From Luteibacter sp. OK325 (lineage in GTDB: Bacteria > Pseudomonadota > Gammaproteobacteria > Xanthomonadales > Rhodanobacteraceae), in the NCBI RefSeq assembly GCF_003050935.1, contig NZ_QAOX01000004.1, positions 186,001 through 250,000 of the forward strand: a stretch of DNA of 64,000 nt, read 5' to 3'. How positions within the stretch are numbered: the stretch's first letter is position 1; every line of letters starts with the position of its first letter. This document shows positions 59,217 to 64,000 of the stretch, piece after piece. Below the pieces are notes generated by a model that searched no databases, was not told where the DNA came from, and saw only the letters and a program-made list of their open reading frames with translations. The position numbers and the translations under genes were made by a program.

Positions 59217-59555
59217 ATGAAGAAACTTTCCTTTCGCACCGCCGTCGTCTCGTTAGCGTTGGCTGTTTCGATCCTGGTAGCTGGGACAGCCAGTGCCTCG
59301 ACAACGATCGATGCCACGGTCAACAGCTGGCTCGTCCAGGACTACCCCTCAGGCCAGGGCATTGTCCTCTGGTACACAGGTTCAACCTGCACGAACGGAC
59401 AGCTTCTTTTCAATGTGGGCGAACCGGTGGAGCGGCATAACAGGCTCCTCGCGATGATCCTCTCGGCGAAAGCGATGGGCGCCAGGATGCACGTGACCTA
59501 CAACGTCGTTAACGGGTCGTGCCTCATCAACGACTTCGGCGTGACCGGCCCCTGA
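59217..59555 (+). CDS. Small exported two-cysteine protein A1
   Basis: A 112-residue protein. The signal peptide MKKLSFRTAVVSLALAVSIL is cleaved near TASA (residue ~28). The mature ~84 residues contain IVLWYTGSTCTNGQLLF and LAMILSAKAMGARMHVTYNV followed by NGSCLINDFGV. The two Cys should form one disulfide. It is homologous to A2 (61777-62109): both share YTGS.C..G.L, a LSAKA.G helix and a NG..C.I strand. AAGGGGAA six bases before the ATG. First gene of the A1-B1-A'-B2-A2 array, just downstream of a GacA-box-like site. Family not recognised; a structural or toxin/inhibitor role cannot be told apart. Confidence 0.8.
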   Translation: MKKLSFRTAVVSLALAVSILVAGTASASTTIDATVNSWLVQDYPSGQGIVLWYTGSTCTNGQLLFNVGEPVERHNRLLAMILSAKAMGARMHVTYNVVNGSCLINDFGVTGP

Positions 59556-59591
59556 TCTCCCCACCACCTGCCCTCACGTGGGAGATCTATC

Positions 59592-60593
59592 GTGCTGATG
59601 AAGCGTACATCGCTACTCGCGTTCATGCTTGTGACCTCCGCGGCAAGTGCTCAATCCGTCCCCGAGAAGTATTTCGGCTATTTCGGCGGCGACTACGTCA
59701 GCGAGAATCCGTCCAACCCGGGGATGGGAACGACCCTTAGCGAAATGAAGGACCACACGAACATCTACTCGATCGGCGCATGGTCATACGACACCAGTCC
59801 CGCGGGCAAGATTGCCTCCGAGAACTACGTCCTCGGAGAGCTGGCCGCCGCCAAGGCCGCGCACCTGCATGCCGTCGCTCCGGCCACCCCGTTCGTTTTC
59901 CAGGGCGCCGGAACGGGTTGCAGGTTCATGGACCCGGACGCGAACCGTGCTTGGGCCAGCTTTGCCCAGAAGATGATCGACCAGGGCTATCTCATCCCGA
60001 ACGATCCCGTACGAAGCACGGTCGTCGCCGTCTATCTCGTCGACGAGCCGAACGGCGATGGCTGTCTGGATGATGTCGACGGCGCTGTGAATCCCATTCT
60101 GCAAAATGCGATCAATGCCATCAGGACCTTTCCGGGTACCGTCACCCTTCCCATGGCGTCCATCCTGACGACGGACTTCAAGAGCTTCAAGAAAGGCATT
60201 GAGCTCATCGACTGGCTTGGCTTTGACCAGTATGGCGACAGCGACAAGAACTGGGCTGGCCACATGAGCAGTTTGAAGAACTACGCGCCAGGGAAGAAGT
60301 TCATCGTGGTGCCCGGAGCGATGCAAGGTTGCAAGGATGTCGACGTTGATGATACCGGTCGATTTACCGATGCCCTGACCAACGATCCTGATGTCGTGTG
60401 GCTCGCGCCTTTCATGTGGATATCCACGTCATCGACATGCCTTGGCGTGCGCGACCTCCCCAATCTGCGGGCCACCTATGCGCAGTTCGGTCTATCCATC
60501 AAGGCGCAGCAGTGCAACTCGTCGCCTGCAGCCAAGGGGTTCTGCCAGTCGACGAACATTTCGCCGGCTATCGACTTGCTGCTCAACAACTAA
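59592..60593 (+). CDS. Exported TIM-barrel-like protein B1 with DEPN motif
   Basis: A 333-residue protein. The signal peptide MLMKRTSLLAFMLVTSAASA is cleaved before Q21. The mature protein begins VPEKYFGYFGGDY. Alternating strands and helices suggest an eight-stranded barrel: NIYSI (b1/2), HLHAVAPATPFVF (b3), VVAVYLVDEPNGD (b4), TLPMASILTTD (b5/6), IDWLGFDQYG (b6), KFIVVPGAMQGC (b7), VVWLAPFMWIS (b8). DEPN at the end of b4 is the position of the acid/base Glu in clan A glycosidases, but no second Glu is evident at b7. Six Cys are conserved with B2. GTG start with GGGAG seven bases upstream. Likely periplasmic or secreted; substrate unknown. Confidence 0.8.
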   Translation: MLMKRTSLLAFMLVTSAASAQSVPEKYFGYFGGDYVSENPSNPGMGTTLSEMKDHTNIYSIGAWSYDTSPAGKIASENYVLGELAAAKAAHLHAVAPATPFVFQGAGTGCRFMDPDANRAWASFAQKMIDQGYLIPNDPVRSTVVAVYLVDEPNGDGCLDDVDGAVNPILQNAINAIRTFPGTVTLPMASILTTDFKSFKKGIELIDWLGFDQYGDSDKNWAGHMSSLKNYAPGKKFIVVPGAMQGCKDVDVDDTGRFTDALTNDPDVVWLAPFMWISTSSTCLGVRDLPNLRATYAQFGLSIKAQQCNSSPAAKGFCQSTNISPAIDLLLNN

Positions 60594-60628
60594 CGCCAGC
60601 ACATCCGTTAACTCGGAAGGGGAACACC

Positions 60629-60709
60629 ATGAAGAAGATGCTTTTCCGCTGTAAGGCGGTGGCCAAGTGCGCGCCCCAACGGCCCCGATTTCCAACATCA
60701 CCCACCTAA
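60629..60709 (+). pseudogene. Remnant of a third A copy (A')
   Basis: A 26-codon frame with its own GGAAGGGGAACACC leader. The first ten codons (MKKMLFRCKA) parallel A1 (MKKLSFRTAV), and the leader (GGGGAAC) matches A1's. Its end (CGGCCCCGATTTCC) matches the A1 stop region (CGGCCCCTGATCTCC). The body between is missing, an internal deletion of about 280 bp. It lies between B1 and B2, so the array was once (A-B)(A-B)A. Confidence 0.6.
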
Positions 60710-60724
60710 GATAGGAGATCCGTT

Positions 60725-61741
60725 GTGCCGATCAATCGCCTATCGTTAATGACTTTCCTGTTTCTTACCTCGGCGGTCAGTGCCCAATCCGCCCCCGAGA
60801 AGTACTTCGGATACTTCGGTGGAGACTACCCTGTCACACCCGGTGCATCAGTGGGCTCCGGACTCGCCGAGATGAAGGATCACATCAACCTCTATTCACT
60901 CCAGAACTGGTCCGGCCTTACCACATCGGACGCTAGAATCGACAATCAGGCCAGGGTTCTCGCGCGTCTGGCGCAAGCAAAAGCTGCGCATGTACATGCC
61001 ATGGTTCCAGCTCACCCGTTCGTATTCCAAGCAGTAAGAGACAGCGGCTCAGGACAGACAACATGCTGGAACAATGACCCGACGGCTGCCGCCTCGTGGG
61101 CATCACTTTCCCAAGCGATGGTGGATCAGGGGTATCTCATTCCCGGGGACCCTGTGCGCAGCACGGTCGTTGCTGTCTACATAGTGGACGAACCGAACGG
61201 GGACGTCTGCCTGTCCGATACCCACGGACAAGCGAACCCAAGCTTTGTCAACGCCATAAATGCAGTCCGGCAGGATCCACGGACGGCATCACTTCCCATT
61301 GCGTCGATTCTGAGTCGAGACGCGGACAACTTTGAGCAGGGCGCGAAGTTGCTTGATTGGGTGGGTTTCGACTACTACCCAGACGATGGTGCGCAGTGGA
61401 AGAATGACTTTGCGTCGTTCAAGGCTTCGGTTCCCGGCAAGAAATACATTGTCGTTCCAGGCGCCAGAGAAAACTGCGGCACCGACGTTAGAAACAACGA
61501 CCCCGCCGCCTTCCTGGATGCGATGAACAATGATCCTTCGGTAGTTTGGCTGGCGCCGTTCATGTGGATCTCCGGTGATCCTCCGTGTAAGGGAGTTCGA
61601 GACCTTCCGGACCGTCGGGCGACCTACACGCAGGAGGGCATGAACATCCGCAATGCGCAGTGCAGCAGCTCTCCGGCGGACAAGGCGTTCTGCCGCGGTT
61701 CGTCAAACGTCAGTGCAGCCGTAGAGCTGCTTCTCAACTGA
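60725..61741 (+). CDS. Exported TIM-barrel-like protein B2 with DEPN motif
   Basis: A 338-residue paralogue of B1, roughly half identical by eye. The signal peptide MPINRLSLMTFLFLTSAVSA precedes QSAPEKYFGYFGGDY. Conserved landmarks: AQAKAAHVHAMVPAHPFVFQ, VVAVYIVDEPNGDVCLSDTH, LLDWVGFDYYPDD, KKYIVVPGARENC, VVWLAPFMWISGDPPCKGVR. The six Cys align with B1. GTG start with AGGAGA before it. The gene has visibly lower GC and more AT-ending codons (ATA, AGA) than B1, so it has a different history despite tandem position. Confidence 0.8.
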   Translation: MPINRLSLMTFLFLTSAVSAQSAPEKYFGYFGGDYPVTPGASVGSGLAEMKDHINLYSLQNWSGLTTSDARIDNQARVLARLAQAKAAHVHAMVPAHPFVFQAVRDSGSGQTTCWNNDPTAAASWASLSQAMVDQGYLIPGDPVRSTVVAVYIVDEPNGDVCLSDTHGQANPSFVNAINAVRQDPRTASLPIASILSRDADNFEQGAKLLDWVGFDYYPDDGAQWKNDFASFKASVPGKKYIVVPGARENCGTDVRNNDPAAFLDAMNNDPSVVWLAPFMWISGDPPCKGVRDLPDRRATYTQEGMNIRNAQCSSSPADKAFCRGSSNVSAAVELLLN

Positions 61742-61776
61742 AGCGTTCATCCACGCGTTTCCAATTAGGGCCACAC

Positions 61777-62109
61777 ATGAACAAAGTCATCAACAAGGCT
61801 TTCGCGTGCGCAACCATCGTCGCCCTGGGAGCCATGAGCACCGCCGCCATGGCGACCGCGCATATCGATGTCCTGGCATCGTCGATCCTGCCCAAGAACG
61901 ACGTCGGTGGCGTCGTCACGCTTTACTACACCGGCTCTGTATGTAGTTCAGGTCATCTCAGCATGGACAGTAGCGACACCCCGGACCGAGTGAAGACACT
62001 GTGGGCGACGGTCATGTCCGCCAAGGCAGCGGGTCAGTCGTTGGGTTTCGATTACGACTTCAACGGCGACACGTGCATTATTCGGGCGTTTACCATCGTG
62101 CCGGGATGA
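61777..62109 (+). CDS. Small exported two-cysteine protein A2
   Basis: A 110-residue protein. The signal peptide MNKVINKAFACATIVALGAM ends near AAMA (residue ~26). The mature part is VVTLYYTGSVCSSGHLSMDS, LWATVMSAKAAGQSLGFDYD, then FNGDTCIIRAFTIV. Same two-Cys plan as A1; the core YTGS.C..GHL and MSAKAAG align directly. AGGG six bases before the ATG at 61777. Last gene of the array; a strong terminator follows 17 bp after its stop. Confidence 0.8.
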   Translation: MNKVINKAFACATIVALGAMSTAAMATAHIDVLASSILPKNDVGGVVTLYYTGSVCSSGHLSMDSSDTPDRVKTLWATVMSAKAAGQSLGFDYDFNGDTCIIRAFTIVPG

Positions 62110-62125
62110 GCGAATCGTGTTGTTG

Positions 62126-62155
62126 AAAGGCCGTGCATCGCTGCACGGCCTTTTT
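62126..62155 (+). terminator. Intrinsic terminator of the A/B array
   Basis: AAAGGCCGTGCA-TCGC-TGCACGGCCTTT, perfect 12-bp stem, then TTC. It closes the plus-strand array before the convergent methyltransferase gene. Confidence 0.92.
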
Positions 62156-62209: not shown

Positions 62210-63172
62210 TCAGTGCCTTACCGAACGCGCCAACTTCGCCATGCGCCTGAGGGGTTCAGTGATTCGCCAGGATCGCGATGCCTTAATAGCGTTTAGCTCC
62301 GACGTGGCATTTTCCAGTGCCTTATGCAGCTCACCCACATCCCGACTTCCTGGTGTTCCCAGTCGGGACGCCGCGGCAGCTACTCGCTCCCAACTGGCGA
62401 CAGCAGCTGGTCGGTCAGCGCTTCGACGAAGGAACACGGCGAATTCGATGGTTCCTTCCTGGGTGTCCTGGAACTCGTGGCATTCGAGATCGATCAGGTC
62501 GTGCTGAACCATCGTGGCCATCAGGTTGGCGAAGCTCTCCGGCGTGAACACCCAGCAGTGGACATCGTGATAGTCCTCGGTGTGGATGGTGCTCTCGGCA
62601 AGGGAAAAAGCTTGTTCAAACGTGTGTAGATTCGGGATGCGCTCAAGGGGCAGTGGCCCTTGCCATGCGGCGTTGCCGTCGACCGCCCGCACGTTCAGGA
62701 CGTGGTCGAGAATGTTCCACAGCTGAGGACGCCTTGCCCGCCTCACATGTGCCTCAATGACCTCAGGCATTTCCGTAGGGCGGCGGGTGTAGTCAAAGGT
62801 GAATCGTTTGTCTGGCACAACGAGGCGAATCTCACCGTTCTCGTTAAGGATCGACGAGAGTTCCTTGAGCCAGGTGATGAGGTCCGGGACATGTTCAATC
62901 ACATGTGAGGCGATAACGTAATCCACCTTGCGGCCTGCGAGGCAATCGGCCAGCGAGTTCTGTCCCCAGACCGCGTCGACATCGACGATTTCCGATGGGT
63001 CAAACCCGTGTCCGACGGCGTACTTCCGCCTCAATGTCTCCGTGTCTGCGTGATCAACATAGATGACATTCGTTTCGCTTTTGCGAATGAAGGGCTTATT
63101 GAGCGCCCCAATTTCCATGATCGATATACGGTCGAACGGTAGATCCTTGCGGATGAGCTCGCGGGTGTTCAT
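62210..63172 (-). CDS. Class I SAM-dependent methyltransferase
   Basis: A 320-residue protein. The methyltransferase-11 type Rossmann core has SIMEIGALNKPFIRKSETNV (altered motif I), VDYVIASHVIEHVPDLITWL and LVVPDKRFTFDYTRRP. The C-terminal coiled and basic tail LNAIKASRSWRITEPLRRMA is a sequence often seen at the ends of polysaccharide glycosyltransferases and methyltransferases. ATG at 63172 preferred over TTG one codon earlier. With the adjacent acyltransferase it suggests a surface-glycan locus continuing past the window. Slightly lower GC than average. Confidence 0.87.
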   Translation of the reverse strand: MNTRELIRKDLPFDRISIMEIGALNKPFIRKSETNVIYVDHADTETLRRKYAVGHGFDPSEIVDVDAVWGQNSLADCLAGRKVDYVIASHVIEHVPDLITWLKELSSILNENGEIRLVVPDKRFTFDYTRRPTEMPEVIEAHVRRARRPQLWNILDHVLNVRAVDGNAAWQGPLPLERIPNLHTFEQAFSLAESTIHTEDYHDVHCWVFTPESFANLMATMVQHDLIDLECHEFQDTQEGTIEFAVFLRRSADRPAAVASWERVAAAASRLGTPGSRDVGELHKALENATSELNAIKASRSWRITEPLRRMAKLARSVRH

Positions 63173-63222
63173 CAATGACTCGGACAGCCCCTGGAACCCG
63201 TAGAAGTATCATAGGCACGCGA

Positions 63223-64000
63223 TCACGAATGTGAATTTTTTGCGAATCCGTCCTGGACCGCCGACGTGGACGGCCTCGTGTACTTCGCACGCAGGCCAAG
63301 GAATGGTTTTTCAATCGCATAGTAGGAGAGCGCGGAGATGGCAAGCACCGCCGGGAAGACGATCAGGACGATCGTGAGGGCGACGTCGTACTTAGGGACT
63401 CCCGTCCACCGCAGCAACCATCCGCTCATCCCGATGATGATCAGGATTGAGACGTGCAGGAGATAAGTGCTGTAGCTGATCTCCCCGATGCCCGATGCGA
63501 CGGCTGAAAGAAACCTGGGGACCTTTTTCGCAACAGGAAGGTAAGTGAAGATCACCAATGCCCAGGCAACCCCTTCAATCGTCGGCCACACCCCTTTCCA
63601 GTTCGCGACGACGGGCCATCCGCCGAGCCTGTGGAATCCGTAGACGACCGCGACGATCAACGCGGCGGCCCCGACAAAGCTCCAAGTATTTGCCTTCTCA
63701 GGCGAATGGTGATCGGCGTACAACTTGGCCGCAATCATCCCGATGAGAAACTGATCGATCCGGCCCAGACTGGTCCAGTACGACACGTCCCTGATGTTTG
63801 AACCGTAAAACGTCGTGCCGTAACGAATGAGGATCGCCAAGGCGATGATGGCTAGCAAAGGGCGGATACCGCGCTCGTTCAACACACGGATCAGGAAAGG
63901 AAACACCAGGTAGAACTGAAATTCGACGGCAACCGCCCAGAACATGGACCCGACGACGCCCATGGAAGCGACTGCCGGAAAGTAGCCGGTCGGCAGAACG
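63223..64000 (-). CDS. Acyltransferase 3 family membrane protein, C-terminal part (cut by right edge)
   Basis: The frame is open to the window edge; 258 residues are visible. Membrane helices recur (VLPTGYFPAVASMGVVGSMF, WAVAVEFQFYLVFPFLIRVL, LISYSTYLLHVSILI-type segments, SALSYYAIEKPFLGL). SMFWAVAVEFQFYLVFP corresponds to the SLWSLAVEEQFYLLWP motif of OafA/acyltransferase-3 proteins, which O-acetylate LPS or exopolysaccharide. The N-terminal catalytic His helix lies outside the window. Upstream of the methyltransferase by 50 bp, same strand. Confidence 0.88.
   Translation of the reverse strand, partial: VLPTGYFPAVASMGVVGSMFWAVAVEFQFYLVFPFLIRVLNERGIRPLLAIIALAILIRYGTTFYGSNIRDVSYWTSLGRIDQFLIGMIAAKLYADHHSPEKANTWSFVGAAALIVAVVYGFHRLGGWPVVANWKGVWPTIEGVAWALVIFTYLPVAKKVPRFLSAVASGIGEISYSTYLLHVSILIIIGMSGWLLRWTGVPKYDVALTIVLIVFPAVLAISALSYYAIEKPFLGLRAKYTRPSTSAVQDGFAKNSHS

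What the first reader, a model, noticed from the sequence alone, without database searches (positions are those of the whole stretch)
59217..62109. Tandem array of two unfamiliar exported protein types (A1-B1-A'-B2-A2)
Small two-Cys exported proteins (A) alternate with exported ~335-residue barrel proteins (B), the whole array carrying its own leader and a strong terminator. The alternation suggests A and B work as a pair (for example enzyme plus accessory, inhibitor or binding partner). I recognise neither family. The duplications imply selection for dose or diversity.
Basis: partly seen in the sequence, partly recalled or inferred. Interest (0 to 1): 0.72.

Follow-up and report, generated by a model that had tools for sequence, protein, structure and literature searches.

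The report
Modular AB5-like secreted protein carrier genes
Soil bacteria related to Luteibacter appear to make secreted complexes built like cholera-type AB5 toxins, in which small ring-forming carrier proteins are paired with quite different payload proteins that end in a similar short docking tail.

Summary
The array is real: A1-B1-A'-B2-A2 at 59217-62109. Pfam, NCBIfam and PDB sequence searches recognise neither A nor B; predicted structures do. A is an OB fold whose listed PDB neighbours are mostly AB5-toxin B subunits (44 of 50 listed; best E 3.3e-3). B is a clan GH-A-like TIM barrel with the beta-4 Glu but no conserved beta-7 nucleophile. B ends in a Cys and a short hydrophobic tail (ISPAIDLLLNN). 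That tail is the key. Tailed B genes have A-like genes beside them (12 of 13); tailless ones do not (0 of 5). Similar tails end unrelated payloads beside A-like genes: Ig-like proteins, RHS proteins, a PKD protein and a subtilase. By eye they resemble the stretch by which SubA enters the SubB pentamer. A second module, A3-Ig-A4, lies just past the window. Best reading: AB5-architecture complexes with interchangeable payloads on a shared A2-like docking tail, in environmental bacteria. Linkage and tail are shown by comparison; ring formation, docking, glycan binding and catalysis are inferred. A' is a 26-codon relic, not a protein.

The parts
59217..59555 (+). A1: exported 112-aa OB-fold protein, AB5 B-subunit-like (predicted carrier/binding subunit)
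   Evidence: ORF; AF2 pLDDT 83.1; Foldseek PDB: 44 of the 50 listed matches are AB5 B subunits, none at E<=1e-3
59592..60593 (+). B1: exported 333-aa clan GH-A-like TIM-barrel payload with C-terminal tail
   Evidence: AF2 pLDDT 88.7; Foldseek PDB best E 6.2e-6, 78 hits at E<=1e-3; 44 of the 50 listed are glycosidases of clan GH-A families (clan assignment recalled), the others GH18, psicose epimerase, isocitrate lyase
60558..60590 (+). B1 docking tail ISPAIDLLLNN (residues 323-333), after Cys318
   Evidence: low confidence in the monomer model (residues 321-333 mean pLDDT 54)
60629..60709 (+). A': 26-codon relic with an A1-type leader and start
   Evidence: local alignment against shuffles
60725..61741 (+). 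B2: exported 338-aa barrel payload, 56-58% identical to B1
   Evidence: fold inferred from B1
61709..61738 (+). B2 docking tail VSAAVELLLN
61777..62109 (+). A2: exported 110-aa paralogue of A1; closest relatives an A of G113 (60%) and A3 beyond the window (48%)
62125..62154 (+). terminator-like hairpin followed by a T-rich run

Best explanation
The array encodes secreted AB5-architecture complexes. A proteins are OB-fold subunits that most likely form a (hetero)pentameric ring binding surface glycans. B proteins are glycosidase-fold payloads that plug into the ring pore by a C-terminal A2-like tail, roughly h-x-[P/A]-h-h-x-x-h-h at the very end. The tail is a modular docking tag: unrelated payloads (GH-A-like barrel, Ig-like, PKD, RHS, subtilase) carry it beside A-type genes. 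Shown: the genes, their linkage, similar tails across unrelated payloads, the predicted folds. Inferred: ring formation, pore docking, glycan binding, type II secretion, and what the barrel does (glycan cleavage, or glycan binding if catalysis is lost).
For: A fold: 44 of the 50 listed Foldseek PDB matches are AB5 B subunits, from LT-IIb through CT, pertussis toxin, ArtB, PltC and SubB. B fold: 44 of 50 listed are GH-A-type barrels. B tail (classed by eye; the five tailless C-termini score -1.3 to -14.1) against A-like neighbour: 12 of 13 tailed, 0 of 5 tailless (Fisher p 7e-4 by gene, 2e-3 by locus). Tail matrix trained on B tails only: 5 of 66 non-B genes within 600 bp of an A-like on the same strand score >=10, against 0 of 451 others (p 3e-5). 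Ig-like payload searched by its own profile: 14 of 15 ORFs have an A-like gene within 170 bp on the same strand, 10 of 15 score >=4 (3 of 451 others do); without the 4 seed genes, 10 of 11 and 7 of 11. Control: 0 of 30 own-genome pieces hold an A-like. Subtilase ending YDYLPVIISYILS beside an A-like in G1070. Published SubA: Cys-331, and Lys-Lys-Tyr-Ile-Pro-Val (333-338) enters the B pentamer (PMC8876466 passages). Fusion to the A2 peptide suffices to assemble non-native cargo with LT B subunits (PMC6107655 passages). Own genome: the four tail-pattern matches that end an ORF >=80 aa are B1, B2, the Ig protein and one protein without an obvious signal peptide. GspD secretins present.
Against: No hit of A to AB5 subunits by sequence; the fold match is modest (best E 3.3e-3, none at 1e-3, TM about 0.5), and other OB folds (SilF, eIF5A) are among the 50 listed. 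One tailed B (G113:C1:585100) has no A-like in its 15-kb locus. In 27 of the 40 further A-like loci fetched, 18 of 20 outside the order, I saw no tailed neighbour. RHS tails of family f2 score poorly on the B-trained matrix (3.7, 0.6, -5.7). The wide A profile was partly seeded from B neighbourhoods; the narrower first profile already found or contained A-likes at 8 of the 9 positive B loci, G051 needed the wide one. The Ig tail of the own genome prompted the tail idea, and related genomes are not independent, so p-values are nominal. The resemblance to SubA is by eye over four residues. Payloads include non-enzymes (Ig, PKD), unlike classical A subunits. No complex was modelled.
Confidence: 0.7

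Rival explanations
1. The tail is a sorting or secretion signal (for example recognised by a type II or other export machine), and A-like proteins are co-secreted lectins or chaperones that do not form an AB5 complex.
For: The tail is short, C-terminal and shared by unrelated exported proteins; three type II secretins above cut-off in the genome.
Against: A general secretion tag should occur on secreted proteins away from A genes. In this genome the two tail patterns tried found, among ORFs with a signal peptide, only B1, B2 and the Ig protein between A3 and A4 (the patterns are narrow and miss other tail spellings). Tailless B homologues lack A neighbours.
Confidence: 0.15
2. A proteins are inhibitors or immunity proteins that neutralise the payloads (toxin-immunity pairs), as expected for RHS polymorphic toxins.
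For: One or more small genes directly beside a larger secreted protein; RHS-repeat payloads, a class that includes polymorphic toxins (recalled).
Against: A1 has an AB5 B-subunit-like predicted fold; six different A-likes follow one payload in G436 and five (plus one on the other strand) follow one in G090; the common element across payloads is the tail, not the catalytic domain, and the Ig and PKD payloads have no obvious toxin domain.
Confidence: 0.08
3. Ordinary extracellular polysaccharide-degrading enzymes next to an unrelated small protein; the linkage is a by-product of local duplication.
For: Glycosidase-type fold; tandem copies in one locus.
Against: Linkage recurs across genera with divergent A subfamilies and several payload folds; B lacks a conserved beta-7 nucleophile.
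Confidence: 0.07

Closest known systems
Subtilase cytotoxin SubAB
   Same: OB-fold binding subunit and a payload whose C-terminal A2 helix, held by a disulphide, enters the B pentamer through residues that include Tyr-Ile-Pro-Val (PMC8876466 passages); one relative found here (G1070) has a subtilase payload with tail YDYLPVIISYILS
   Different: In the window the payload is a GH-A-like barrel; other payloads are Ig-like, PKD or RHS. No sequence match of A to SubB, and the tailed subtilase is closest to deseasin MCP-01, with no SubA among the 60 shown of 150 PDB sequences
Cholera and heat-labile enterotoxin family (CT, LT-IIb)
   Same: Closest listed structural neighbours of A; A2 tail in the B5 pore, A2 fusion is enough to carry non-native cargo (PMC6107655 passages)
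   Different: No ADP-ribosyltransferase payload; no detectable sequence similarity of A to the B subunits
Pertussis and typhoid toxins (hetero-oligomeric or alternative B rings)
   Same: Several different OB-fold-like subunit genes with one payload, as in G436, G090, G116 and G076
   Different: RHS or GH-A-like payloads; hetero-ring not shown
Clan GH-A glycoside hydrolases (GH113, GH42, GH2, GH35 and others; family and clan names partly recalled)
   Same: TIM barrel with an invariant Asp-Glu-Pro at the end of beta-4
   Different: No Pfam or NCBIfam family; no conserved acid at beta-7; C-terminal tail

Membership tests
AB5-type toxin/complex | OB-fold binding subunit of about 100 aa with a helix between beta-3 and beta-4 and a disulphide | tested here: met
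   AF2 model E28-34, E39-43, E48-52, H71-87, E90-98, E101-110; Cys58 and Cys102; Foldseek: 44 of 50 listed are AB5 B subunits, best E 3.3e-3. Fold similarity only; the disulphide itself is inferred
AB5-type toxin/complex | Payload with a C-terminal A2 segment that docks in the ring | tested here: inconclusive
   Tail found and tied to A-like neighbours; resembles SubA 333-338 by eye; docking not tested
AB5-type toxin/complex | Five B subunits per payload | not testable with these tools
   No multimer prediction or experiment
AB5-type toxin/complex | Adjacent genes, both with Sec signal peptides; type II secretion available | tested here: met
   GspD in own genome, three above cut-off. Signal peptides by inspection only
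AB5-type toxin/complex | B subunit binds cell-surface glycans; payload acts on a host | not testable with these tools
   No glycan data; the one named relative is Luteibacter rhizovicinus
Clan GH-A glycoside hydrolase | (beta/alpha)8 barrel with catalytic Glu at the end of beta-4 | tested here: met
   AF2 model and Foldseek; Asp151-Glu152-Pro153, right after strand 144-148, invariant in 16 of 18 B genes aligned (a broken and a partial copy left out)
Clan GH-A glycoside hydrolase | Catalytic nucleophile Glu at the end of beta-7 | tested here: not met
   After strand 236-239 the invariant residues are Val240-Pro241; no conserved acid follows in the 16 aligned. Asp212 (after beta-6) is invariant instead
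Subtilase cytotoxin family (SubAB) | Payload is a subtilase | tested here: not met
   B1/B2: GH-A-like barrel; only the G1070 relative has a subtilase
DUF5992 (PF19454) | Pfam match above gathering score | tested here: not met
   2 of 23 A-superfamily members match weakly, best E 0.0087; A1 none

The most novel reading that the evidence does not exclude
An unrecognised, widespread class of AB5-architecture carriers in environmental Gammaproteobacteria, in which one kind of docking tail lets OB-fold rings (often mixed from several different subunits) carry interchangeable payloads: glycosidase barrels, Ig/PKD domains, subtilases and whole RHS proteins. This makes AB5 a general modular secretion-and-targeting chassis rather than a handful of animal toxins.
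Probability: 0.55. Interest if true: 0.9.

Novelty: new variant of a known kind. Interest (0 to 1): 0.82.

Why it matters
AB5 complexes are known mainly as a few animal toxins with a handful of enzymatic A subunits. If the tail is a docking tag, this locus shows the same chassis used with many payloads in environmental bacteria. That gives a sequence rule (tail plus adjacent small OB-fold genes) for finding such complexes in genomes, bears on where the known toxins came from, and offers a testable explanation for RHS proteins that travel with rows of small exported genes.

Tried and rejected
Pfam and NCBIfam gave nothing above cut-off for A or B; PHROGs and PADLOC were not run. PDB sequence searches gave only chance-level hits. 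B in plasmids: none. B in a phylum sample: own genome only, 1 of 398. An early reading that B1/B2 are plain polysaccharide hydrolases was dropped when the tail turned up on unrelated neighbours. The idea that the A genes at G113:C1:413118, G115, G120, G102 and G141 were orphans was dropped after the Ig-like profile found a payload (broken in G113) beside each; the gene caller had not listed these, so the adjacent counts are probably low. The consensus terminator scan did not list the hairpin that folding shows. The looser own-genome tail pattern is not enriched as such (13 matches, 21 for its reversed control, 11 of the 13 ending in TGG rather than a stop); the stricter one gave 3 matches, control 0. 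Literature searches (listings, plus passages of PMC3482391, PMC6107655 and PMC8876466) showed no description of AB5-like complexes with GH-A or RHS payloads, nor any paper naming DUF5992; this says only that those searches did not find one.

Rows dropped before counts: two of the 18 B genes (a broken copy in G113 and a partial one in G109) were left out of the B alignment but kept in the 13 and 5; one fragment of the broken B was removed from the adjacent set (67 to 66); genes with identical last 12 or 45 residues were collapsed and genes whose C-terminus ran off a locus left out; one partial Ig hit (L207, which does have an A-like beside it) gave no ORF at the threshold and is not in the 15.
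Full report
What is there. The window lies in a 4.94-Mb genome (contig C4:186001-250000) of a genus that includes G113, whose contig matches in length the one named hit, Luteibacter rhizovicinus. A' is a 26-codon ORF that keeps only an A1-type leader and start, so it is taken as a relic. A hairpin with a T-rich run follows A2. Beyond the window, on the same strand, lie A3, an Ig-like exported protein and A4. A2 finds itself, A3 and A1 by BLAST; A4 is found by profile, and all four A-profile hits of the genome lie within 6.6 kb.

Families by sequence. Neither A nor B matches Pfam or NCBIfam above cut-off or any PDB sequence beyond chance. B occurs in 13 of 233 genomes of its family, in none of 72,556 plasmid records at E 1e-5, and only in the own genome among 398 genomes sampled from the phylum.

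Folds. The A1 model (pLDDT 83.1) has strands 28-34, 39-43 and 48-52, a helix 71-87, then strands 90-98 and 101-110. Of the 50 PDB matches listed, 44 are AB5-toxin B subunits, from LT-IIb at E 3.3e-3 through cholera, pertussis, ArtB, PltC and SubB; the other six are SilF and eIF5A chains. No match reaches 1e-3 and TM is about 0.5, so this is fold similarity, not demonstrated homology. The B1 model (pLDDT 88.7) is a TIM barrel; 44 of 50 listed matches are glycosidases of clan GH-A families (best E 6.2e-6), the others GH18, psicose epimerase and isocitrate lyase (clan assignments recalled). Across the 16 homologues aligned, Asp151-Glu152-Pro153 after strand beta-4 is invariant, as is Asp212 after beta-6, but no acid is conserved after beta-7. 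The standard retaining pair is therefore absent: either a different mechanism or a non-catalytic glycan binder.

The tail. After the barrel B1 has two Cys (308, 318) and then ISPAIDLLLNN at the C-terminus; residues 321-333 are as uncertain in the model as the signal peptide. By eye, 13 of the 18 B genes found have such a tail; five (G078.C2, G088, G077, G109, G075) end otherwise and score -1.3 to -14.1 on the tail matrix, against 12.9 to 25.3 for the 13 that trained it. With a wider A profile (27 seeds) A-like genes were found beside 12 of the 13 tailed B genes, adjoining or overlapping as stop-to-stop frames, and in none of the five loci with tailless B (Fisher p 7e-4 by gene, 2e-3 by locus). 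The exception is G113:C1:585100. Two cautions: related genomes are not independent, and some seeds of the wider profile came from B neighbourhoods. The first, narrower profile already found or contained A-likes at 8 of the 9 positive loci and at none of the tailless ones; G051 needed the wider one.

The tail on unrelated payloads. I trained a matrix on the B tails alone and scored other called genes in 65 loci. Non-B genes within 600 bp of an A-like on the same strand scored >=10 in 5 of 66 cases, against 0 of 451 for the rest (p 3e-5); at >=4 it was 7 of 66 against 3 of 451. The five are an RHS protein of 1551 aa in G076 (24.0), an Ig-like protein in G112 (22.2), a PKD-domain protein in G1070 (14.3), an RHS protein of 1540 aa in G090 (12.0) and the own Ig-like protein (12.0, the one that prompted the idea). 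In G1070 the A-like between lies beside a subtilase ending YDYLPVIISYILS (4.5) as well. RHS proteins of family f2 end DIVPLLYQLLLNG or similar, alike by eye but poorly scored (3.7, 0.6, -5.7).

Independent check. I searched the Ig-like payload by its own four-sequence profile: 14 of 233 family genomes have it. Of 15 ORFs recovered, 14 have an A-like gene within 170 bp on the same strand (the other, L199, is at a contig end), 10 score >=4 on the B-trained matrix, and 14 end in a tail by eye, the exception being a broken copy in G113; one of the 14 (L206) scores -8.5. The four seeds had been chosen because they lie by A genes; without them it is 10 of 11 beside an A-like and 7 of 11 scoring >=4. 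Four of these places (L199, L202, L204, L205) had not come up in any A search, and 3 of them have an A-like. None of 30 control pieces of the own genome held an A-like. In the own genome two narrow tail patterns gave four matches that end an ORF of 80 aa or more: B1, B2, the Ig protein and one protein without an obvious signal peptide.

Comparison with known tails. In SubA the A1 and A2 parts are held by Cys-288/Cys-331, and residues Lys-333 to Val-338 (Lys-Lys-Tyr-Ile-Pro-Val) penetrate the B pentamer (PMC8876466, passages). Tails here with a similar outline are YDYLPVIISYILS, WLIPIINLLLN and NISPIINFILEDDD; B2 and several Ig tails lack the Pro. A Cys lies a short way upstream in B, the subtilase, L141 and the RHS proteins, but not in the Ig-like and PKD proteins or L167. 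This likeness is by eye and was not tested statistically. [quoted passage not shown] Some B subunits are known without A subunits (PMC9120245, abstract start in the listing), which would fit A-like genes without a tailed neighbour.

Mechanism, with status. Shown by comparison: both proteins look exported, are genetically linked across genera, and the link follows the tail and not the payload fold. Inferred: A forms a ring (perhaps mixed where several different A-likes occur, as with six in G436), the tail sits in its pore, the ring binds glycans, type II secretion exports the complex (GspD present), and the barrel acts on or holds the bound glycan. The target (plant, fungus, protist, other bacteria) is unknown.

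Scope and limits. A-like genes were found in 22 of 274 genomes sampled from the class and 26 of 200 from the order, own genome included. Of 40 such loci fetched and read, I saw a tailed neighbour in 13 (11 of 20 in the order, four of them from one genus; 2 of 20 outside it) by eye and by the Ig search. So the wider superfamily need not all work this way.

Verdict. The finding is real and its pairing idea is right at the genetic level; the better description is an AB5-architecture carrier with interchangeable payloads. New variant of a known kind; interest 0.82.

Noticed in passing
   Followed up: yes
window 62210-63175 (-) and 63223-64000 (-), continuing in L029 to 10372: A methyltransferase and an Acyl_transf_3 acyltransferase separate the two modules; an Acyl_transf_3 gene also lies near the A genes of G112 and a methyltransferase near those of G117. 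They might alter surface glycans that the carrier binds; speculative.
   Followed up: partly
L070:4995-7666 (G436), L132:10267-15680 (G090), L068:4012-7868 (G076): Rows of four to six different A-like small exported genes by RHS proteins (one in G090 and one more in G076 on the other strand); looks like subunits of mixed rings.
   Followed up: partly
L154:5417-8130 (G1070): A-like gene flanked by a tailed subtilase and a tailed PKD-domain protein, an arrangement reminiscent of SubAB in a different family of the class.
   Followed up: partly
L031:5807-6802 and L201 (both G113): One B copy and one Ig-like copy are broken by a stop in G113 while an A-like gene remains beside each.
   Followed up: no
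L042, L044 (G088, G077): Tailless B homologues carry an extra C-terminal stretch of roughly 110 residues without a Pfam match, also present before the tail in L043 and L045.
   Followed up: no
L172-L175 (G000:C6 and C1): Own genome has three GspD-type secretins above cut-off and a fourth below it, so perhaps more than one type II-like system.
   Followed up: no
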